Positions 5,070 through 63,830 of a DNA stretch of 64,000 bases are shown here, in pieces. The notes below the pieces were generated by a model. The model ran no database searches. It was not told where the DNA came from and saw nothing but the letters and a program-made list of their open reading frames with translations. The stretch covers positions 62,001 to 126,000 of the IMG/VR virus record IMGVR_UViG_3300000553_000005; one strand, 5' to 3'. This stretch comes from a virus. Within the stretch, counting starts at the first letter, position 1; every line of letters begins with the position of its first letter. The position numbers were made by a program, and so were the translations under genes.

Positions 5070-5100
5070 TTGCCACAAAACTCTTAGAACACGGTATAAT
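5070..5100 (+). promoter_or_regulatory. sigma70-like promoter
   Basis: TTGCCA(CA)-N17-GG-TATAAT is a near-perfect copy of the window consensus, 45 nt before the HTH gene at 5147. Confidence 0.75.
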
Positions 5101-5146
5101 AAAGTATGACAACGAGGCCGATGCCTCTAACTTAAAGGAGCCAACA

Positions 5147-5527
5147 ATGGCGAAGCGTTTTCTTATCAACGGTGTGGAAGTCCTGGCTGAAGATCTTGGC
5201 AGTGGGAAGTGGTGTGCGGTCCCGGTGGATCTCCCTGGCACTATTCTCAAGGTGCTGAGTGGGAAGATCAACATCAATGATTTCCTCAACCCCAGCAATC
5301 TCAACATCCAGCCTCTTGGGGACAAGGAAGAGGCCCAGGATGAGTGTGAGGGTTGCGCGTGTGAACAGGAGGCCCCGGCTCGTAGCAAGTCTAGCAAGAC
5401 CGTGCGCGAGTATCGCAAGGCCGAAGGTATGAACAAGACCGAGATGGCTGATTATCTGGGTGTCAGTCGCCGCACTCTTGGCCGCTGGGAAGATGCTGGC
5501 AAGCTGGCCTCTGAGGTCGGTCTGTAA
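5147..5527 (+). CDS. putative DNA-binding protein with C-terminal helix-turn-helix
   Basis: 126 aa, preceded by a strong promoter and AAGGAG. The N-terminal 70 residues form a mixed alpha/beta segment of unknown type. A cysteine-rich linker (CEGCACEQE) follows. The C-terminal 40 residues form an HTH (MNKTEMADYLGVSRRTLGRWEDAGKL) of the Cro/MerR-like type. Presumably it is a transcriptional regulator acting on phage or host promoters. The gene is GC-richer than its neighbours, hinting at recent acquisition. A terminator at 5621 closes the unit. Confidence 0.6.
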   Translation: MAKRFLINGVEVLAEDLGSGKWCAVPVDLPGTILKVLSGKININDFLNPSNLNIQPLGDKEEAQDECEGCACEQEAPARSKSSKTVREYRKAEGMNKTEMADYLGVSRRTLGRWEDAGKLASEVGL

Positions 5528-5620
5528 GTAGAACTTCAGTGCTAGGGGCAAGAGGGACGCAAGAGTAGCGCTTGGCTGCGTCCTTCTGGAACGGCAAGTG
5601 CAAATCCGTCAACTGAACTT

Positions 5621-5648
5621 CAAGACCCCAGGAAACTGGGGTCTTTTT
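5621..5648 (+). terminator. intrinsic terminator
   Basis: ACCCCA-GGAAAC-TGGGGT followed by CTTTTT. It ends the HTH transcript. A second hairpin, GGACGCA/TGCGTCC, lies upstream in the 3' untranslated region (about 5550-5578). Confidence 0.85.
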
Positions 5649-5651
5649 GTA

Positions 5652-5659
5652 GTATTAAG
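5652..5659 (+). promoter_or_regulatory. GTATTAAG motif
   Basis: A TAGTATTAAGC element directly after the terminator and 14 nt before the next start. The position fits a promoter that restarts transcription. Confidence 0.4.
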
Positions 5660-38935: not shown

Positions 38936-41900
38936 TTAATTTCTCACTATGTTATGTTCTGTTACTAAATTTCCACCCAAAGTTTTCAAAGCAAATGCCT
39001 TGGCTTTTTCTGGATCAAAATCCTTGCAAGAGAAGACGTTAATGAAAATTTTCTGAAGTTCATCCAAGGCATGAATAGTTATAGAAGATTCGTAAAGGAA
39101 CTGAACTACGCTGATTCCATCTTTCTTGGGATGGGTTTTGTAAGTTCCTTCAAACTTATCCTGGCCCCAACTGTAAATTGGTCCTCGCTGCATATCAATT
39201 TCATCACAGAGGTCTTCGGCAAACTTTTTCAAGATGTGGGTCTGGAATTTATCTGGGTCAACATCATGAAGATCCATAATAACCTCTTGGCCGTAATGCT
39301 CTTTCTTAGTTTCTTCAATAATTTCATCGCTATCATCGGCTACCTTTTTAATATAAGTAATGTAGCCCTGCTTGACACTGGCGGCTTTTGAATAGGGAGT
39401 GATGGCCGTAACCACTTCTACTTGCTTCTTACTACGAAGGCCCTGCATAGCCTTATCCCACAAATCTTTGTCCAGTTTGAAAGTTGTGCCTAAGTGGTAA
39501 ACTTGACCAAATTGGTCTTCTATATGTTTCTTAAAGCTTCTTAGTGGAGTCATCCCTGAGAGATTTTCTAAGATAAACTCTTGAAGTTCTTCGATGAACT
39601 GCTCTCTCGGATAGTATTTTTCCATGCCACCATAGGCTTGTTTGATTAGCAGACTCGCTTTTTTAACTGATAATTCTCTCAATTGTTGCTCCGTAATTTG
39701 CCTCGTGTCTAAAAGAACTTGAAGTGTTGCCTGATAGAATCCAGAGTCAATTCCCATAGTTTCATTTCTTATGGCTCTCTCGGCTATCTTTTCATCGTAC
39801 ATCTGGAAATGAGAATCTTCATCCATTCCTAATTTTTTCTGAATATAAGCCATGGTATCATCCATATCCTGCATATAGTAGGAAATGAAGCAGGATACAG
39901 CACAAAAAGAGCCTTTTTTATAATTAATTTCATTTCCCGCTGGTATAGCTTCATGGCAATCTTCACATTTTTGACAGAACCCACCCCTTACCAAAATTTT
40001 CTCACGTTCTGCCTCAAGATCATCATAACCATTGATGTTTAGTTGTTCCTCAATATAGGTTCTAGCTCTCCTCTTTTTATTTTCATCAGCATTCGGCAGA
40101 AACTTATCTATTAAACGATTTATCGCTGGTCGGAAATACTCCCTTACACAATAACTGCAACAATAGGGATTGCCAGATAAATAGATGGCATCTTCTTCTG
40201 CCACAGGCTCATCACAATTAGCACAATTGGTTAGCTCCTGATCTTCATGATCTTCATAGAGATCATTATCATTGTTAATATCCCAAGCACCAGGGAAGAT
40301 AATTTTTTGCTCCATCGATTCTTTAATCTTCGGATCAAATTCTGCAAGTGTTTCAAAAATCCACCAGTAATTTGAATCTACATCATATTTTTGCCCAACA
40401 TCAGCACTATCACTAAACGGATCCCTACTAAATATCTGATCTCCAATATTTCTACCATCTACATCTTGGCATTCAATAGCACCAACTCCTTGACCTTGAA
40501 TATTTTTGGTCGGGACTCGGATGAGTGCATAGCGATCAGAACCATAATGCTCATTGGTGCCACTGTCCTGAGTAATAACATAGAGAGGACCACGTTCCAG
40601 ATAGGCTTCAGCGGTCCCCTCCCCCTGTGTACACCAATGGGAACCTGTTGACATAAGCACCAAGGCTTCTGGAGTGGTACAACGATAGAAGGAGTAACCT
40701 CTGGTCTTAGCTAAAGGCTCACAACCATCTCTGAGATACTTATCCTTCTCTCTAATTAATTCTCTACCCTGCTCATTTTTGGATAGGTCGGCTCTAGTAG
40801 CCGTGTCATATATTTCTTTAAGATCTGAAAGACCTAACTTCATGATATCTTTTTCACCAGTAAAATTAGCACTACGTTTTAGCATAGCATAACGTTCAAG
40901 CATAATTTTAATATCATCTCGTTTCATTGTTCCGGCTAGCGAAGATCTACCTTCTGGATCATCCATAGCTTTTCTAGTCTCTCTACATAACCATTCTAAA
41001 TATTCTCCATTTTGAGAAGGGTCAACTAAAGATAGAGTATCTACCCCATGAGGAGGGAGATGATATTTAGAAGCAAGAGCTTTTTTCTTAGCTTCCGAAG
41101 CGGCGGCAAATTTCAATAGAGCAGATTTAAAGTTAGAAAGTGAAGATTTCTTCAGTTTTTCAGAAGGTTCAGAGGTAGGTTCCAGTTCATCTGTTGCTAT
41201 TTCACCCTCTATTTCTGGTGCTGATTCCTCTTGCACTTTGCCCATTCCACTATTTTCAATAATATCATCAATATCTGTACTCGTAGGGGTGAATTGGTCC
41301 TTAACATATTCTAGTATGTCATCGTAAAGCGTATCATAAGTCATCAGTTCATCATAAACCGGCTGAAGGACTTTCAAGGCCCATTTATAATCCCCTAGAG
41401 TTAATCCGGGGGTCACTTTTTCTACTCTGTCACTCTGCCCATTTTCAAAAGCTCTAATACCTGATGTCAGATTAGCTAAATACCAATCAAGAGCATAGTG
41501 ATGGTTAACAGTATTGGGGAGACCCATTCGGATAGCTGCTTCATGCATTGCTCTAAATACTTTGGTGGCCTTTGGATCCCAGCCTGTCCCATAAATGAGT
41601 TCCTCGGCATCATCCATAGCTTTTTGATTTCTTTCTTCTTTTCCTGGAATAGTTGCAACAAATGCCTTTACTTTTTTCTCAATTATATCATTATAAAACT
41701 CTTTAAAACATCCCTCGCAACAAAAATTATGGCTTTCTTTATCAGGGGAGTCATCATTATTCACATAAATAGTATCGTAGCTGTCTGTTTCCATATATGC
41801 ATCACATTGATCACATTTTTCAAAATGAGCCATATCATTAATATCATTAAAAATAAATCCTTCTCGGATATATCTTTCCAAATCCCTATCATAATTAGAC

Positions 41901-42646
41901 AACCATTGAACTATTCCCCACCATTCATCATTGACTTGATAACATTTATCTTCAATTTCCCAGTTTCCTATATCCTCACCATCTGCATCTTGAGCTTCAA
42001 ATCCTGTGACAGAATCATCCGGAACATGAATCTGAAGATAGCGATCTGATTCATAAGAACTTTCTTTTTCTTCTGTAGTAAAGACATAAATGGCTCCCCT
42101 ACTTAAATAACGTTGGGCATAGCCTGGGTTCTTAGTACACCAATGAGAACCTTCCCCCATCAATTGCACGGCTCTTACAGTAGTCGGCTCATAACATACG
42201 ACACCTTCACCTGGACTGCCGATCTCTTCACAGCCTTCTGCTAAATATTGTTTCCTTCTTCTCTGTAAATCTCTCTCTCGCTCTTTCTTAGAATAGTCAT
42301 CAGGAGAAGATTCTTGTATAACACTGATAAGATCGTTAAAATTGGCATAGGAAAGAATATTATTTTTGGGTTTACCATTAATCAAACCTGTAGCCCAGGC
42401 AGCACTATTTTTTAAACGTCCAAACTCCTCCAGAGCATCTTTTAATTCATCTTGAAGTGCTGGCCCCACATTTTCGTCATGTCTCAAGACTTTTACTAGC
42501 CATTCGGTATATTGACCGTTTGGAGTTGGATCTATATTCGCACAGATCTCTACGAATCCTTGGGAAACCAAATATTTTTTCTCCAGTGCCTCCTTCTTTG
42601 CCTGTGAAGCTGCGGCTAGAAGACTCAATAAAGTTGACTTGAACAT
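38936..42646 (-). CDS. 1236-aa internally duplicated WCT-motif / zinc-finger protein
   Basis: The largest gene in the window. It contains two homologous halves. Each begins with a helical FKSALL..AAAS.AKK segment, then a helix-rich part, then GSHWCT...A..YLxRGxxYVxT...SDRY domains near residues 170-220 and 660-710. At least three CxxC...CCxxC zinc modules follow (CDQCDAYM...FCCEGC, CANCDEPV...CCSYC, CEDCHEAI...FCAVSC). The GxHWCT element is found in uncharacterised phage proteins. The repeat suggests a tandem duplication and fusion. AGAGG SD on the minus strand. Function unknown. It heads the DUF3326/YkgJ operon. Confidence 0.7.
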   Translation of the reverse strand: MFKSTLLSLLAAASQAKKEALEKKYLVSQGFVEICANIDPTPNGQYTEWLVKVLRHDENVGPALQDELKDALEEFGRLKNSAAWATGLINGKPKNNILSYANFNDLISVIQESSPDDYSKKERERDLQRRRKQYLAEGCEEIGSPGEGVVCYEPTTVRAVQLMGEGSHWCTKNPGYAQRYLSRGAIYVFTTEEKESSYESDRYLQIHVPDDSVTGFEAQDADGEDIGNWEIEDKCYQVNDEWWGIVQWLSNYDRDLERYIREGFIFNDINDMAHFEKCDQCDAYMETDSYDTIYVNNDDSPDKESHNFCCEGCFKEFYNDIIEKKVKAFVATIPGKEERNQKAMDDAEELIYGTGWDPKATKVFRAMHEAAIRMGLPNTVNHHYALDWYLANLTSGIRAFENGQSDRVEKVTPGLTLGDYKWALKVLQPVYDELMTYDTLYDDILEYVKDQFTPTSTDIDDIIENSGMGKVQEESAPEIEGEIATDELEPTSEPSEKLKKSSLSNFKSALLKFAAASEAKKKALASKYHLPPHGVDTLSLVDPSQNGEYLEWLCRETRKAMDDPEGRSSLAGTMKRDDIKIMLERYAMLKRSANFTGEKDIMKLGLSDLKEIYDTATRADLSKNEQGRELIREKDKYLRDGCEPLAKTRGYSFYRCTTPEALVLMSTGSHWCTQGEGTAEAYLERGPLYVITQDSGTNEHYGSDRYALIRVPTKNIQGQGVGAIECQDVDGRNIGDQIFSRDPFSDSADVGQKYDVDSNYWWIFETLAEFDPKIKESMEQKIIFPGAWDINNDNDLYEDHEDQELTNCANCDEPVAEEDAIYLSGNPYCCSYCVREYFRPAINRLIDKFLPNADENKKRRARTYIEEQLNINGYDDLEAEREKILVRGGFCQKCEDCHEAIPAGNEINYKKGSFCAVSCFISYYMQDMDDTMAYIQKKLGMDEDSHFQMYDEKIAERAIRNETMGIDSGFYQATLQVLLDTRQITEQQLRELSVKKASLLIKQAYGGMEKYYPREQFIEELQEFILENLSGMTPLRSFKKHIEDQFGQVYHLGTTFKLDKDLWDKAMQGLRSKKQVEVVTAITPYSKAASVKQGYITYIKKVADDSDEIIEETKKEHYGQEVIMDLHDVDPDKFQTHILKKFAEDLCDEIDMQRGPIYSWGQDKFEGTYKTHPKKDGISVVQFLYESSITIHALDELQKIFINVFSCKDFDPEKAKAFALKTLGGNLVTEHNIVRN

Positions 42647-46365: not shown

Positions 46366-48957
46366 GTGGATTTGGCACAGTTGAAATCACATTTCCCTTT
46401 TCCTGAGATTCGACCATCTCAGGAAAAAGCTCTGGAAAAATTTGTAGTGGATGAAGAGAAGGGTAAGAAGTTTTCTATTTTTGAACTACCTACTGGTATT
46501 GGAAAGTGTTTCGCAAAAGGCACTCCCATCCTTATGTTTGATGGGGTAATCAAACCTGTAGAAGAAATTAAGGAAGGAGAGCTTGTAATGGGGCCTGACT
46601 CCACTCCTCGTAAGGTGATCAGTTTATCTCAAGGCAGAGATGAATTATTTAGGGTGACTCCAGTGAAAGGCGACTCTTTTGTAGTCAATTCCTCCCACAT
46701 TCTTTCTGTAAAAATGACCGAAAACCATAAACAAATTATTAACCTAACTTTGTCGGATTATTTGGCTAGAAGCAACAATTTTAAGCATCATGCTAAACTT
46801 TATCGAACTGGCGTAGATTTTGAGAGTGTATTAACACACGATTTAAAAGAACTTGCTTATTATATTGGATTATGGTTGGGGGATGGTTCTTCAAAAAGGT
46901 TGACTGAAGTTACTACTGCGGATAAAGAAATTCAAACCTATTTAAGCAATCTAGCTTCAAATTTTGGCCTTAGTTTGACTGCATATAACAATGGATCTAA
47001 GGCTACTTCTTGGAATATAACTACACAGGCTATGGGAGGTAGAAAAGATAGAAATATTTTATTAAACGAATTAAAGAAACTAGATATTTCTTCTAACAAG
47101 TCCATCCCTTTGTCTTTCAAAACCGCATCTAGAATTTCCAGACTTAAGTTACTCGCAGGTTATTTAGATGCTGATGGGAGTTTAGCCTCTAATACATTTG
47201 AATTTTCATCAGTTAATAAAAATTTAGCAGATGATATTTCATTTATAGCCCGTTCTCTTGGGTTCAGTGTGTATGTTAAACCTTGCCATAAAACTTGTCA
47301 AACAGGAAATGGGGGGGTTTACTATCGCGGGAATATAAGTGGGGATATCCATTTGATCCCAACTCTCCTCCCAAGAAAACAAGCAAAAATGAGACAGCAA
47401 AAAAAGAGTGTGCTTGTTACTGGTTTTAAAGTGGAACCTGTTGGACTAGGGGATTATTATGGTTTTGGTGTTGATGGGGACCACTTATTTCTTTTGGGGG
47501 ATTTTACAGTAGTTCACAATTCCGGTCTTTCTATTGCAGCTTTAGGGTGGGCTGCGGATTGTCCTGTTGAACCCCCCTTGAAACCTGGAGGAACGATCCT
47601 CACTTCTCAAAAGATTCTACAGGATCAATATGCGTCTGAATTTGGAAGTATTGGTCTAGCTGATCTTCGTGGTGCCTCTAACTACCGATGTGGGGAGCAG
47701 GAATCTAACTGTGAAATCGGCAGTGTTATGAATAAACTGGCTGGAACTATCTGTGAACATTGCCCTTACAGAAGTGCCAAGGCAGCTTTTATGGCTTCTC
47801 CCAGGGGTATTACTAATTTTGCCTATTATCTTACAGACTCAATGTTCAAGCGGCAACTACCGAAGCGTAAGCTCATAATTATTGATGAAGCGCATAATAC
47901 TGAAAATGTTTTGATCGCTTTTTCTGAAATTGGTATTTCAGCTAATCGTCTAGAAGAATTTGATATTAAACTTCCCACTAAACCACTTACTACTATTCCT
48001 GAAACTAAATATTGGGTAGAGCATACAGTTATTCAAGCCGCTGACATTTATGGAATTAAGTTAAAGGAAGAAATCGCTGCGGCTCTACAAGGACATGGAA
48101 GTTTGATGGCTTTGCTTAAGAAGGAAATGAATCTCTCCTCTTTCAAGAGTAACCTTGGTAAATTTCTAGAATCAGAGTCAGAGATGTGGTTTATTCATCA
48201 GACTGACGGTTTGGGTATCAAGCCGCTTCGTGGGGATGTTTTCTCTGAGGAACTTCTTTTTAGTCGGGCTGAAAAAATCATGTTCATGTCTGCTACCATT
48301 CTGGACCCTCGCACTTTTGTTCGCAATCTAGGAATTTCAGTCAAGGATTGTGGCTACATGAGTCTGCCTTCAGAATTTGCTCAAGATAACAGGAAAATCA
48401 TTTTCACCCCCGCTGGCTCTATGTCTTACAAAAATTATGACACCACTCTACCCAAGCTCCTCAACAAGATTGAGCGTATTTTGGAGAAGCATAAGAATGA
48501 AAAGGGAATTATTCATTGCCAATCGTTCAAGTTGATGAATCATATTCAACAGGGTTTAAGGAGAAGTCCTCATTACTCCAGATTGGTCGCACATGACTCC
48601 CAATCTCGCGCCTATGCAGTGGATAGGCACTTGACCTCAACAGAGCCTACGGTGCTTCTCAGCCCCTCTATGACCGAAGGTTTGGACCTTCGTGGGGATC
48701 TATCCAGGTTTCAGGTGGTAGCGAAAATGCCTTTCAATAACTTGGCAGACCCTTATGTAAAAAGAAGAATGGAGTTAGATAAAGCGTGGTATTCTTGGAC
48801 AACAGCCCTTACTCTCATTCAGGGTTTAGGTCGTTCCATCCGTTCTAAGGAAGACTATGCCAGGAGCTATATTATAGATCAGGATTTTAATATGTTTTTG
48901 AAAACCTGTAATGATATACTACCTGAATGGTGGCTAGAGTCAATTGAATTTCGCTAA
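46366..48957 (+). CDS. DinG/XPD-type iron-sulfur DNA helicase interrupted by an intein
   Basis: 863 aa precursor; GTG start. Q-like RPSQEKALEKF and Walker A ELPTGIGK-S (split between Lys47 and Ser386 by the intein). After splicing: a four-cysteine FeS region (NYRCGEQESNC... CEHCPYRSAK), DEAH (IIDEAHNTEN), MSATILD, EGLDLRGD and QGLGRSIRS. This is the XPD/DinG family: FeS-dependent 5'-3' helicases used in DNA repair or R-loop removal. The spliced helicase is about 525 aa, short for DinG but typical for phage members. Confidence 0.9.
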   Translation: MDLAQLKSHFPFPEIRPSQEKALEKFVVDEEKGKKFSIFELPTGIGKCFAKGTPILMFDGVIKPVEEIKEGELVMGPDSTPRKVISLSQGRDELFRVTPVKGDSFVVNSSHILSVKMTENHKQIINLTLSDYLARSNNFKHHAKLYRTGVDFESVLTHDLKELAYYIGLWLGDGSSKRLTEVTTADKEIQTYLSNLASNFGLSLTAYNNGSKATSWNITTQAMGGRKDRNILLNELKKLDISSNKSIPLSFKTASRISRLKLLAGYLDADGSLASNTFEFSSVNKNLADDISFIARSLGFSVYVKPCHKTCQTGNGGVYYRGNISGDIHLIPTLLPRKQAKMRQQKKSVLVTGFKVEPVGLGDYYGFGVDGDHLFLLGDFTVVHNSGLSIAALGWAADCPVEPPLKPGGTILTSQKILQDQYASEFGSIGLADLRGASNYRCGEQESNCEIGSVMNKLAGTICEHCPYRSAKAAFMASPRGITNFAYYLTDSMFKRQLPKRKLIIIDEAHNTENVLIAFSEIGISANRLEEFDIKLPTKPLTTIPETKYWVEHTVIQAADIYGIKLKEEIAAALQGHGSLMALLKKEMNLSSFKSNLGKFLESESEMWFIHQTDGLGIKPLRGDVFSEELLFSRAEKIMFMSATILDPRTFVRNLGISVKDCGYMSLPSEFAQDNRKIIFTPAGSMSYKNYDTTLPKLLNKIERILEKHKNEKGIIHCQSFKLMNHIQQGLRRSPHYSRLVAHDSQSRAYAVDRHLTSTEPTVLLSPSMTEGLDLRGDLSRFQVVAKMPFNNLADPYVKRRMELDKAWYSWTTALTLIQGLGRSIRSKEDYARSYIIDQDFNMFLKTCNDILPEWWLESIEFR
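46507..47520 (+). mobile_element. intein with LAGLIDADG homing endonuclease
   Basis: 338 residues from Cys48 (CFAKGTPILMFDG) to Asn385 in VVHN, followed by Ser at +1. Blocks: N-terminal CFAKGTPI, PVKGDSFVVNSSHILSVKM (block B with His), LAYYIGLWLGDGS and LAGYLDADGS (two LAGLIDADG motifs), GDYYGFGVDGDHLFLLGDFTVVHN (blocks F/G). The insertion site is the P-loop GIGK|S, a commonly invaded position. No recoding or stop is present, so the intein should be functional. Confidence 0.93.
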
Positions 48958-57136: not shown

Positions 57137-57294
57137 TGATGAATTTTGGATGGTTCAACCCTAATTCAGATGGACTTCCAGGTTTGGGAATTACTAATGA
57201 AGGAGAGAATATCTTCAATGATATCCCCGACCAGATTGTATTTCTAGAGCATGAGGATCTTGAATTCCTCGCCACCGTAGGGATGAAGTGGTGA
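57136..57294 (+). CDS. hypothetical protein (52 aa)
   Basis: AAAGGAG SD. Acidic, Asn/Gly-rich (NFGWFNPNSDGLPGLGI). Stop overlaps the GTG start of the nucleotidyltransferase gene. Confidence 0.5.
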   Translation: MMNFGWFNPNSDGLPGLGITNEGENIFNDIPDQIVFLEHEDLEFLATVGMKW

Positions 57295-58208
57295 AAAACA
57301 TCTTCACAACTTTGTATGGGAGTCATTTGTTCGGCTGTAATGTGGCCGGTTCAGATGAGGACTATAAATCGGTTCATCTGGAAGATCTATCTGATCTTCT
57401 CTTTAAGGACACCCACGCACTCAATAGCAAGGATGAAACTGGCCCAACCAAAATTGAAACCGAAACCTTCAGTCTTCGCTTCTACCTGAAGATGCTTGCT
57501 GGGGGACAGGTTATTGCCACTGATATGTTCTTTGCTCCCCCACAGTTCTGGAGGGGAGAAGTGTCTCCTCTCTGGAAGGAGATTCAAGCACTAAAGCCTT
57601 ACGCTATTACTAGAAGGCTTCATGCCTTCGCTTCCTATGCCAAGAATCAAGCATTTAAGTATGGGAACAAAGGGCTTAAGATCCTGACTGTGCAGAAGGC
57701 TATCAAACTTTTGGAGTCTAACACTAGCTTTGAGAAACTGTGTGAAGAGCTAAAGGGTATGGAAGGTATCAAGTACACCACTGAACATGCGGCTGTGCAG
57801 GATATCCGTCACATTGAAATTTGTGGTAAGGATTGGGGTGAGACTACGGCTTATCATCTGTGGCTCCCGGTTCTCAAAGACCTAGAGGCCCAGTATGGTG
57901 AAAGGGCACGTTTGAGTACCAGGGGTGTTGACCTCAAGGCCCAGTATCAGACCGTCCGTATCACTTCTGAAGCCATTGAGCTACTCTCTACTGGTCATCT
58001 GACTTTCCCCAGGGGCGAGGCCCCTTTGCTGCTCTCTATCCGCAATAATGAGCTTGGGGAAGAGGCTTTGCGTGATTTGGTGGAAAACAAGCTGGCTGAA
58101 CTTAAGGAGACTGTTCCCACTGATTCCCTCCCTGAAAAGGCTGATTGGGACAAGCTAAACGATTTTATTTTGTCTGCTGAAAAAGATTTTCTGAAGAAAA
58201 CTCTGTAA
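57291..58208 (+). CDS. COG3541-type nucleotidyltransferase (RlaP/YcgL-like)
   Basis: 305 aa. N-terminal TLYGSHLFGCNVAGSDEDYKSVHLE is the GSxxxG...DxD nucleotidyltransferase active site, followed by EIQALKPYAITRRLHAFASYAKNQ and a C-terminal helical domain. Predicted to transfer nucleotides to RNA or protein. The COG3541 family is common in phages and of unknown target. The GTG start overlaps the previous stop (GTGA). Confidence 0.75.
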   Translation: MKNIFTTLYGSHLFGCNVAGSDEDYKSVHLEDLSDLLFKDTHALNSKDETGPTKIETETFSLRFYLKMLAGGQVIATDMFFAPPQFWRGEVSPLWKEIQALKPYAITRRLHAFASYAKNQAFKYGNKGLKILTVQKAIKLLESNTSFEKLCEELKGMEGIKYTTEHAAVQDIRHIEICGKDWGETTAYHLWLPVLKDLEAQYGERARLSTRGVDLKAQYQTVRITSEAIELLSTGHLTFPRGEAPLLLSIRNNELGEEALRDLVENKLAELKETVPTDSLPEKADWDKLNDFILSAEKDFLKKTL

Positions 58209-61472: not shown

Positions 61473-61503
61473 TTGCCCAACTTTTGAAAAAGTCCGGTAT
61501 ACT
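61473..61503 (+). promoter_or_regulatory. sigma70-like promoter
   Basis: TTGCCC-AA-N17-GG-TATACT followed by CGGAGG and the gene at 61525. A strong consensus match. Confidence 0.7.
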
Positions 61504-61524
61504 ACAGTATCGGAGGCGTCACCC

Positions 61525-61749
61525 ATGCTTTTCACCTATTCAAGCGTTGAACGGATGAATGAACTGGTCGAGAAGGCCAATAAATCGCTTCGCAAGATTG
61601 GAATTTCTGAAATCGTGATTGATAGTGTAAAGACTCGTAAGGTGCAGGTTGGCGAGAACGCTTTTCTGGAACCCATCTACAAGGGTGAAGGCTTCAGTGA
61701 GGCTGAACTTCGTGATCTTAGAAATTATTTTGATTTAGTCATCCAATGA
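61525..61749 (+). CDS. hypothetical protein (74 aa)
   Basis: GGAGG SD, own promoter. Mixed alpha/beta. It is the last gene before the structured RNA. Unassigned. Confidence 0.55.
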   Translation: MLFTYSSVERMNELVEKANKSLRKIGISEIVIDSVKTRKVQVGENAFLEPIYKGEGFSEAELRDLRNYFDLVIQ

Positions 61750-61776
61750 ATCAGTATTATCCAAAGAAGGCGGTTC

Positions 61777-62052
61777 TTAAGTCCTGAGAACCTGGAATCG
61801 CCAGTTGTGTGTGGGCCTCAGGAGTCCTATCACGAAAGAGCTTGGACAGGCAATGCTCTTGCACTACTGGCCCCGAAAGGGGCCTTTGGTGGTGATGACA
61901 GGTAGGCCAACAACTTCGGTTGTGAAATCCTGACAGTGGCGAAGAATTGACTGTCCAGAGCCAGTTCAGTCTTCCGGTGGTGGGAGGGTGCGCAACCGAC
62001 TGCCATTTACGAGCCGGGAGGGGGAAGGCGAAAGCTCTCCCCCTTCTTTTTT
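61777..62052 (+). ncRNA. ~275-nt structured noncoding RNA with terminator
   Basis: No frame covers this GC-rich segment. Helices: GGTTCT/AGAACC inside GGCG/CGCC near the 5' end, AAGAGC/GCTCTT, a long hairpin containing GGCCCC-GAAA-GGGGCC flanked by CACTACT/GGTGGTG, ACAACTTCGGTTGT with a TTCG loop, GACTG/CAGTC, and a final terminator. Stable GNRA/UUCG loops indicate selection for RNA structure. It has no resemblance I could identify to tmRNA, RNase P, 6S or known riboswitches. It may end the upstream transcript or be an independent RNA; a promoter of its own is not obvious. Confidence 0.6.
62017..62052 (+). terminator. strong intrinsic terminator
   Basis: GGGGGA pairs with TCCCCC, capped by a C-GAAA-G tetraloop; TTTTTT follows (62047-62052). 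Confidence 0.9.
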
Positions 62053-62082
62053 AACTTTCTAACCCTATCTTTGAGGGATGCT

Positions 62083-62778
62083 ATGTTTGAATTTGAGGCT
62101 GGGTTATTAAAACAAGGCTACACCATTTGGGGTAAGAGAATATCTCAAAATATTCATTTTCTTCAGCCTGTAATCGACAAGATTGAAGGAAGATTAATTA
62201 AACATGGAGTCCCTTATCATCATAGTCACGGAGATCTCCCTATAAGTGTAGTAACAGGAAGTTTAGATGGAACCATAACTATCATCCCGTCTGAGGCAAC
62301 GTCAGATATTAATATTCTTTCCATTGGAAAGGCTATACCAGGAATGAAAGATGGCCCTCCCAATGACCCGAAAGCTAGATCTATACCGGAAGGGAGTGAC
62401 GTATATATTCTTACGGGGGTTAAAATGCTCACGGCCAAAGAATTTGTTGCCACTACTTCCTACGCTATTCTTTGGGGTAAATATAATGATTTGAAGCTTG
62501 GAGAACTATCTTTAGAGGATTGGTCAAAATTGTACAAGACCAAAACTAAGCTTGATTGGGAATTGAGTGAGAAGGAACTAAAAAAACAAACAAAATCTAA
62601 AAATTCTTGCTTCAAAAATTCAAAAATTGGGTATAATAGTGTATCGGAGGAAGACATGGAATGCATTCTTGGTGGGACTTACGAGGATTTGGCCGAAAAG
62701 CTTCGGGAAGATGGAATGGAAGAAGTTGAAATCAGCAAGCTCATCGCTGAATTGGAAATGGCTGTTGAAGCTGCATAA
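62083..62778 (+). CDS. hypothetical protein (231 aa) with in-frame internal promoter and start
   Basis: Start at ATG 62083 after GAGGGA. The first ~175 residues are an independent mixed domain; then comes a Lys-rich linker (KELKKQTKSKNSCFKN). The last 40 residues (MECILGGTYEDLAEK...) form a separate helical module beginning at an internal ATG with its own SD and promoter. The two parts may have been separate genes that became fused in frame. Function unknown. Confidence 0.55.
   Translation: MFEFEAGLLKQGYTIWGKRISQNIHFLQPVIDKIEGRLIKHGVPYHHSHGDLPISVVTGSLDGTITIIPSEATSDINILSIGKAIPGMKDGPPNDPKARSIPEGSDVYILTGVKMLTAKEFVATTSYAILWGKYNDLKLGELSLEDWSKLYKTKTKLDWELSEKELKKQTKSKNSCFKNSKIGYNSVSEEDMECILGGTYEDLAEKLREDGMEEVEISKLIAELEMAVEAA
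62607..62637 (+). promoter_or_regulatory. sigma70-like promoter inside an open reading frame
   Basis: TTGCTTCA-N17-GG-TATAAT, then CGGAGG and ATG 62656. Near-perfect match to the window promoter consensus although located inside the gene at 62083. Confidence 0.65.
62656..62778 (+). CDS. 40-aa acidic helical protein from internal start
   Basis: In frame with the gene at 62083. Rich in Glu and Leu (EISKLIAELEMAVEAA) and expressed from its own promoter and GGAGG. It may be an independent product or an isoform. Confidence 0.45.
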   Translation: MECILGGTYEDLAEKLREDGMEEVEISKLIAELEMAVEAA

Positions 62779-63383: not shown

Positions 63384-63590
63384 ATGCCTTGCCCTTGCCT
63401 CCTTGCTGATGAACCTTGCAGACCTGACTGCTCTTGTGTTAACCCTCTTATGTCTTGCGGCTGTCTTTGTTGCTGCACTTATGGTAGTCCTGAACAACAG
63501 AAACGTCAGGCTAATAGACTGGTCACTAACCAAAAAAGAACTCATGTCTTATGTGTGGGAAAACATGGAGAAGATAATTACTGGGGTTGA
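63384..63590 (+). CDS. cysteine-rich protein (68 aa)
   Basis: Starts right after the previous stop. Contains PCPCLLADEPCRPDCSCVNP, then MSCGCLCCCTYGSPEQQKRQANRLV. The repeated Cys pattern followed by YGSxEQ resembles a recurrent small phage protein. Another frame in the same interval reads as a membrane segment, but the cysteine-rich frame has the better start and pattern. Confidence 0.45.
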   Translation: MPCPCLLADEPCRPDCSCVNPLMSCGCLCCCTYGSPEQQKRQANRLVTNQKRTHVLCVGKHGEDNYWG

Positions 63591-63830
63591 GATTTAGCCT
63601 TTTTAGTTTCAGATATTTTCTTCTTGGTTTCTTCAGAACAACTTACCCCTTTATTCCAAGATGGTTTACCCATTTTAGCCTCAGATATTTTCCTTTTGGT
63701 TTCTTCAGTCATTACATGCCCTTGAAGACTGTCACTGATATGTTTCTTTTGCTCATCAGTTCTTTTCTTTCCTGTGTTAGCTTTTCCAACTTTCTCTGCA
63801 TGTTCTTTGGTAATTATTTGTTTACTCCTG
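63578..63830 (-). pseudogene. remnant of a NUMOD3 homing endonuclease
   Basis: On the reverse strand the frame reads tandem NUMOD3 units: GKKRTDEQKKHISDSLQGH, EETKRKISEAKMGKPSWN and EETKKKISETKKAK. An in-frame TAG lies directly upstream of the repeats and there is no start or nuclease domain within the window, so only the DNA-binding C-terminus survives. NUMOD3 repeats are found in GIY-YIG and HNH homing enzymes. Confidence 0.65.

What the first reader, a model, noticed from the sequence alone, without database searches (positions are those of the whole stretch)
61777..62052. Unassigned ~275-nt structured RNA with a strong terminator
GNRA and UUCG loops, several long helices, GC-rich content and a terminator with a GAAA loop lie in a 320-nt gap without coding potential. 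None of the familiar RNA families came to mind on inspection.
Basis: seen in the sequence. Interest (0 to 1): 0.75.

Follow-up and report, generated by a model that had tools for sequence, protein, structure and literature searches.

The report
Orphan structured RNA in a phage
An uncultured phage, distantly related to a soil-bacterium giant phage, carries what looks like a small gene for a tightly folded, non-protein-coding RNA with its own stop signal; it matches no catalogued RNA, no relative could be found, and what it does is unknown.

Summary
On the + strand, about 61766-62052 is non-coding and folds more stably than all 200 dinucleotide shuffles (z -3.85 with the terminator, -3.35 without it; the reverse strand, tested on 61777-62052, gives -1.23). 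It has the largest excess stability of 222 non-overlapping windows. The predicted fold is a three-way junction closed by GGCGGU (61769-61774) and ACUGCC (61999-62004), followed by an intrinsic terminator that is the second strongest found in the 139.8-kb record. A diverged copy of this phage's own promoter (TTGATT-N19-TATTAT) ends 5 nt upstream and scores just below 15 strong sites out of 279,538 positions.

Nothing in Rfam, ARAGORN, 50,697 phage records or IMG/VR pattern scans is related, and two single-sequence covariance models hit only the window, so there is no covariation evidence. Best reading: a discrete structured phage RNA, function unassigned. A cis-acting attenuator for the downstream gene is the main rival. 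It is not one of the Y-like RNAs next to this phage's Ro/DUF2828 gene. Those RNAs, sharing an (A)CAGCAA motif in 8 of 10 phages checked, may be the better find.

The parts
61766..62052 (+). Candidate ~285-nt structured RNA, 5' end to terminator
   Evidence: z -3.85, 0 of 200 shuffles as stable; top of 222 windows; no coding potential
61730..61760 (+). Candidate promoter TTGATT (61730-61735) - N19 - TATTAT (61755-61760), a diverged copy of the phage's own promoter (consensus about TTGCCA-N19-TATAAT)
   Evidence: PWM from 15 sites; rank 18 of 279,538 positions, best + strand site outside the training set, but not clearly separated from the background tail
61769..61774 (+). P1 5' strand GGCGGU, pairs with 61999-62004
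   Evidence: pair probability 0.87
61775..61789 (+). P2 hairpin UCUUA/UGAGA
   Evidence: p 0.88
61790..61903 (+). P3 domain closed by ACCUG/CAGGU, with inner helix AUCGCC/GGUGAU and three hairpins
   Evidence: p 0.86 for both closing helices
61836..61860 (+). Hairpin AAGAGC/GCUCUU within P3
   Evidence: p 0.97
61869..61884 (+). Hairpin GGCCCC-GAAA-GGGGCC (GNRA loop)
   Evidence: p 1.00
61904..61916 (+). 13-nt single-stranded linker between P3 and P4; ends within the UUCG (61915-61918)
   Evidence: unpaired in MFE and centroid
61917..61998 (+). P4, long imperfect rod closed by CGGUUGUG/CGCAACCG
   Evidence: outer helix p 0.99, next helix 0.94
61999..62004 (+). P1 3' strand ACUGCC
   Evidence: p 0.87
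61782..61823 (+). Possible pseudoknot UCCUGAG (61782-61788) / CUCAGGA (61817-61823), in an alternative fold with GGCGGUUCU/GGAAUCGCC
   Evidence: complementarity only; not separable from the nested fold by energy
62016..62052 (+). Intrinsic terminator: GGGAGGGGGA-A-GGC-GAAA-GCU-C-UCCCCCUUCU then UUUUU
   Evidence: -23 kcal/mol; second strongest in the record
61473..61749 (+). Upstream unit: strong phage promoter (61473-61503) and 74-aa ORF (61525-61749), whose transcript would run into the RNA
   Evidence: promoter score 41.7; ORF, coding score +0.36; no Pfam match
62083..62778 (+). Downstream ORF (orphan), no phage-type promoter listed between the terminator and its ATG

Best explanation
A phage-encoded, discrete, structured non-coding RNA of about 285 nt. 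Transcription starts at about 61766-61768 from a weak copy of the phage promoter, and/or the RNA is the 3' part of the transcript from the strong promoter at 61473 that also carries the 74-aa ORF. It ends at the intrinsic terminator. It folds into a compact three-way junction (P1/P2, P2/P3 and P4/P1 directly adjacent) closed by a 5'-3' helix, which should make it a stable RNA. It most likely works in trans as a folded, protein-binding RNA rather than as an antisense RNA. Shown by computation: fold, strand, terminator, lack of coding. Inferred: start site, stability, protein binding, acting in trans.
For: Stability on the + strand only, also without the terminator, and top of 222 windows. High pair probabilities for the main helices; the closing helix starts 9 nt after the -10 element and ends 11 nt before the terminator stem. 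Promoter-like site at the right distance, rank 18 of 279,538. Terminator. No coding signal. Longest complementarity to other phage transcripts is 12 nt, as in shuffled sequence (10-14), so no antisense target stands out.
Against: No homologue found, so no covariation. The promoter candidate differs from the consensus at several positions and the PWM separates it only narrowly from background. The RNA is preceded by a strongly promoted gene without a detected terminator between them, so it may be only a 3' UTR. The downstream ORF has no phage-type promoter of its own, which would fit an attenuator.
Confidence: 0.55

Rival explanations
1. Cis-acting leader or attenuator: the structured part senses something and switches the terminator off, controlling the downstream ORF at 62083.
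For: The terminator ends about 30 nt before the ATG of 62083; none of the strong phage promoters, nor any of the next-best listed + strand sites, lies between them. Alternative pairings that would disrupt the terminator exist: 61970 UCUUCCGGU with 62013 GCCGGGAGG (-12.3) and 61982 GGGAGGGU with 62034 GCUCUCCC (-12.1).
Against: No riboswitch, T-box or leader family matches. The terminator hairpin (-23 kcal/mol) is much stronger than either alternative alone, and such pairings are easy to find in G-rich sequence. The downstream ORF has no recognisable function.
Confidence: 0.2
2. A 3' UTR of the 74-aa gene: the structure only protects and terminates that mRNA.
For: Strong phage promoter at 61473 and no terminator listed between the ORF and the RNA. 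The same layout occurs at 5070-5652: strong promoter, small ORF, structured stretch, terminator.
Against: A simple stabiliser would not need 240 nt of multi-domain fold before the terminator; a separate promoter-like site sits just before its 5' end.
Confidence: 0.15
3. Chance structure in a GC-rich intergenic remnant plus an ordinary terminator.
For: No conservation could be shown.
Against: 0 of 200 shuffles as stable with or without the terminator; top of 222 windows; the other strand is ordinary; GC stays at 55% where the window averages 40%.
Confidence: 0.08
4. A Y RNA, the partner of the Ro/TROVE-like (DUF2828) protein encoded about 4.5 kb downstream.
For: The phage has an RNA-repair set: RlaP (window 57288), T4-type RNA ligase, DUF2828 and a CCA-adding-type polymerase.
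Against: The partner candidates lie next to the DUF2828 gene, as in seven other phages, with a closing stem and (A)CAGCAA motif. This RNA lacks that motif after its closing stem and is more than twice as long as any of those units.
Confidence: 0.02

Closest known systems
Phage-encoded structured non-coding RNAs of unknown function such as GOLLD and ROOL (PMC12286853)
   Same: Structured, non-coding, several helical domains, found in phage genomes
   Different: Those are larger and widely conserved (own knowledge); this one is about 285 nt, a single copy with no homologue found and no Rfam match
Intrinsic-terminator-bounded bacterial or phage sRNA genes
   Same: Intergenic, non-coding, promoter-like site upstream, intrinsic terminator at the 3' end
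   Different: Closed three-way-junction fold rather than a mostly open antisense RNA; no antisense target stands out; not an Rfam sRNA family
Ro-associated Y / Y-like RNAs of phages (suggested for Listeria phage CKA15 in PMC12282133)
   Same: Same genomic neighbourhood of RNA-repair genes; ends joined by a helix
   Different: No CAGCAA after the closing stem, much longer, not adjacent to the Ro/DUF2828 gene
Riboswitch or attenuator leaders
   Same: Folded domain directly upstream of a terminator and a gene
   Different: No family match; no downstream gene of known function; expression platform not demonstrated

Membership tests
Any Rfam 15 family | Covariance-model match at or above gathering score | tested here: not met
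   Only five tRNAs in the window; permissive search of the region gave only below-threshold matches: Histone3 stem-loop (- strand), mir-207, mir-1249
tRNA / tmRNA | ARAGORN call | tested here: not met
   None at 61766-62052
GOLLD / ROOL | Match to the family models; large size | tested here: not met
   No Rfam match; 287 nt (that these families are in the Rfam copy is from memory, not checked by name)
Phage Ro/DUF2828-associated Y-like RNA (as seen here) | Closing stem followed within about 3 nt by CAGCAA, next to a DUF2828 gene | tested here: not met
   Motif absent from 61766-62052 by reading the sequence; those units lie at L013:4210-4570, next to the DUF2828 gene
Intrinsically terminated sRNA gene | Promoter at the 5' end | tested here: inconclusive
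   TTGATT-N19-TATTAT ranks 18 of 279,538 but is a weak match
Intrinsically terminated sRNA gene | Intrinsic terminator at the 3' end | tested here: met
   -23 kcal/mol hairpin and U-run
Intrinsically terminated sRNA gene | Discrete transcript | not testable with these tools
   No RNA data for this uncultured phage
Riboswitch / attenuator | Mutually exclusive terminator and antiterminator controlling the downstream gene | tested here: inconclusive
   Alternative pairings exist but are weaker than the terminator
Conserved structured RNA (any) | Covariation across homologues | tested here: inconclusive
   No homologues found

The most novel reading that the evidence does not exclude
A new family of multi-domain, trans-acting phage RNA, limited to a poorly sampled phage lineage (nearest isolate: acidobacterial phage Tunturi_5), which serves as the RNA part of a phage ribonucleoprotein.
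Probability: 0.25. Interest if true: 0.6.

Novelty: new member of a known kind. Interest (0 to 1): 0.36.

Why it matters
If real, it adds an unclassified structured RNA to a phage that already devotes several genes to RNA repair and management, and it gives a clear target for end mapping and probing. On its own, with one sequence and no transcript data, it stays a good candidate rather than a discovery. The by-product, a shared (A)CAGCAA motif in RNAs beside Ro-like genes of unrelated phages, would make the partner RNAs of phage Ro proteins recognisable by sequence.

Tried and rejected
blastn of the region against 50,697 phage records: only chance fragments. The downstream flanking protein, RlaP and the DUF2828 protein as bait in IMG/VR: no relatives. 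UvsX as bait: two IMG/VR contigs identical in UvsX, which show no copy of the RNA region, and two 73% relatives on 22-30 kb contigs. One gapped pattern of the RNA in IMG/VR: no match. Two 16-mer patterns of the RNA: 12 and 16 stretches, none of which extends into a match by BLAST or nhmmer, so chance. GTDB genomes by UvsX and by the peptide RIEMTQEA: nothing related. Single-sequence covariance models of the 5' domain (R1) and 3' domain (R2): only the window itself in Tunturi_5, Tunturi_4, four IMG/VR contigs and the fetched loci, apart from matches at E>2. Antisense targets: at chance level. A second promoter class (GTATTAAG): not supported. Y RNA: rejected on the motif test.

Full report
Context. 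The window is part of a 139,816-base virus record. The nearest isolate by UvsX (45%) and DnaB-like helicase (30%) is Tunturiibacter phage Tunturi_5, a 309-kb acidobacterial phage (PMC11924767), so the lineage is poorly sampled. The phage has an RNA-repair gene set: RlaP (57288-58208), and beyond the window a T4-type RNA ligase, a DUF2828/DUF7788 protein and a CCA-adding-type polymerase. Some other DUF2828 phage proteins are annotated as Ro-like or RNA-binding proteins.

Observation. The 333-nt gap 61750-62082 has no coding signal in any frame. The + strand folds much better than shuffles, with or without the terminator; the - strand does not. Of 222 non-overlapping + strand windows of the same length, none has so large an excess stability.

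Anatomy. Without the terminator, the predicted fold is a three-way junction. P1 GGCGGU/ACUGCC (61769-61774/61999-62004) closes the molecule. P2 is a hairpin (61775-61789). P3 (61790-61903) carries an inner helix and hairpins, most with high probability, one with a GAAA loop. A 13-nt linker follows, then P4, a long imperfect rod (61917-61998). P1/P2, P2/P3 and P4/P1 are directly adjacent. The terminator stem begins 11 nt after P1. An alternative fold with a 9-bp 5' helix and a 7-bp pseudoknot cannot be excluded.

Transcription signals. An iterated weight matrix found 15 strong sites of a phage promoter, all on the + strand, of the form TTGCCA-N19-TATAAT; the fixed 19-nt spacer is built into the matrix, but 19 was also the commonest + strand spacer (17 sites against 1-10 for other lengths) in a separate count. 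One (61473) drives the 74-aa ORF just upstream. The best + strand site outside those 15 is TTGATT-N19-TATTAT at 61730-61760, ending 5 nt before the proposed start of the RNA. Its score is far below the strong sites and only just above the background tail, so it is suggestive, not proof. The terminator is the second strongest found in the record by a custom scan.

Relatives. None was found with any tool available (see Tried and rejected). In particular, the two IMG/VR contigs with identical UvsX show no copy of the region; both are partial, so this does not show that those phages lack it. The absence therefore limits the claim: no covariation evidence exists, and the RNA may be restricted to this lineage.

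Interpretation. The coincidence of three things, a phage-type promoter-like site, a fold whose closing helix begins 9 nt after that site's -10 element, and a terminator just after the closing helix, favours a discrete RNA of about 285 nt. The strong upstream promoter means that it may also, or only, be made as the 3' part of a longer transcript. The lack of a phage-type promoter between the terminator and the downstream ORF leaves an attenuator possible. With no notable complementarity to other phage transcripts, a folded, protein-binding role is more likely than antisense action, but this is inference; host transcripts were not tested because the host is unknown.

Y RNA test and a by-product. 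Because of the Ro-like gene I asked whether the RNA could be its partner. The sequence directly upstream of that gene (L013:3887-4578) contains several helix-closed units, three of them with the repeated motif ACACCAGCAACCCAA. Looking beside DUF2828 genes in Synechococcus, Listeria and Mycobacterium phages gave similar units: closing stem, 0-3 nt, (A)CAGCAA, insert, stem'. Six further phages fetched after the motif was recognised were an independent test: four had 2-3 such units each (Enterococcus, Campylobacter, Staphylococcus, E. coli), while Vibrio VH1_2019 and Xanthomonas XbC2 had none within 1.5 kb; the rate in the window is 0.03 per kb. No Rfam family other than tRNA reached its gathering score in the seven of these other phages' loci that were scanned, nor did anything at E<2 in this phage's array. 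A transcriptomic paper on the P100-like Listeria phage CKA15 reports three highly transcribed non-coding regions within 2 kb upstream of its Ro-like gene and suggests Y RNAs (PMC12282133); I saw no mention of this motif in the passages read, and the 2014 paper on bacterial and mycobacteriophage Y RNAs that it cites could not be read here, so the motif may already be known. The RNA of the finding lacks the motif and is a different thing.

Verdict. Real, strand-specific, probably a discrete structured phage RNA; unassigned; function unknown beyond inference. Interest is moderate because one sequence without relatives or transcripts cannot go further here.

Noticed in passing
L013:3887-4578 (G000:127887-128578, 1.9 kb past the window), and beside DUF2828 genes in L061, L062, L063, L065, L066, L067, L068: Tandem RNA units next to the Ro/TROVE-like DUF2828 gene: a 7-10 bp closing stem that differs between nearly all units, then 0-3 nt, (A)CAGCAA, insert and the stem's partner strand, about 50-130 nt. 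Found in 8 of 10 phages from unrelated hosts, 4 of them in an independent test; no Rfam family other than tRNA matches there. Likely the Y-like partner RNAs of phage Ro proteins.
   Followed up: partly
window 5529-5652: A second structured, terminator-ended RNA directly after a small HTH-like ORF (5148-5528) with a strong phage promoter (5070): cloverleaf-like fold, z -3.97, no Rfam match at threshold.
   Followed up: partly
window 667, 5070, 22575, 30848, 34033, 42682, 55269, 56948, 59306, 61473, 62607 (and four outside the window): Phage-specific promoter AAAATAAT-TTGCCA-N19-TATAAT, 15 sites, all + strand, 19-nt spacer.
   Followed up: yes
window 62607-62778: A strong phage promoter with ribosome-binding site and in-frame ATG (62656) lies inside ORF 62083-62778, so its last 40 residues may be made separately.
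   Followed up: no
window 46366-48957: DEAD_2/Helicase_C_2 helicase ORF carrying a Hint domain and LAGLIDADG homing-endonuclease domain (intein).
   Followed up: no
window 63578-63712 (- strand): 44-aa ORF with a NUMOD3 motif, probably a homing-endonuclease remnant.
   Followed up: no
window 38936-42646 (- strand): 1,235-aa ORF on the minority strand whose C-terminus matches an S-adenosylmethionine decarboxylase PHROG.
   Followed up: no
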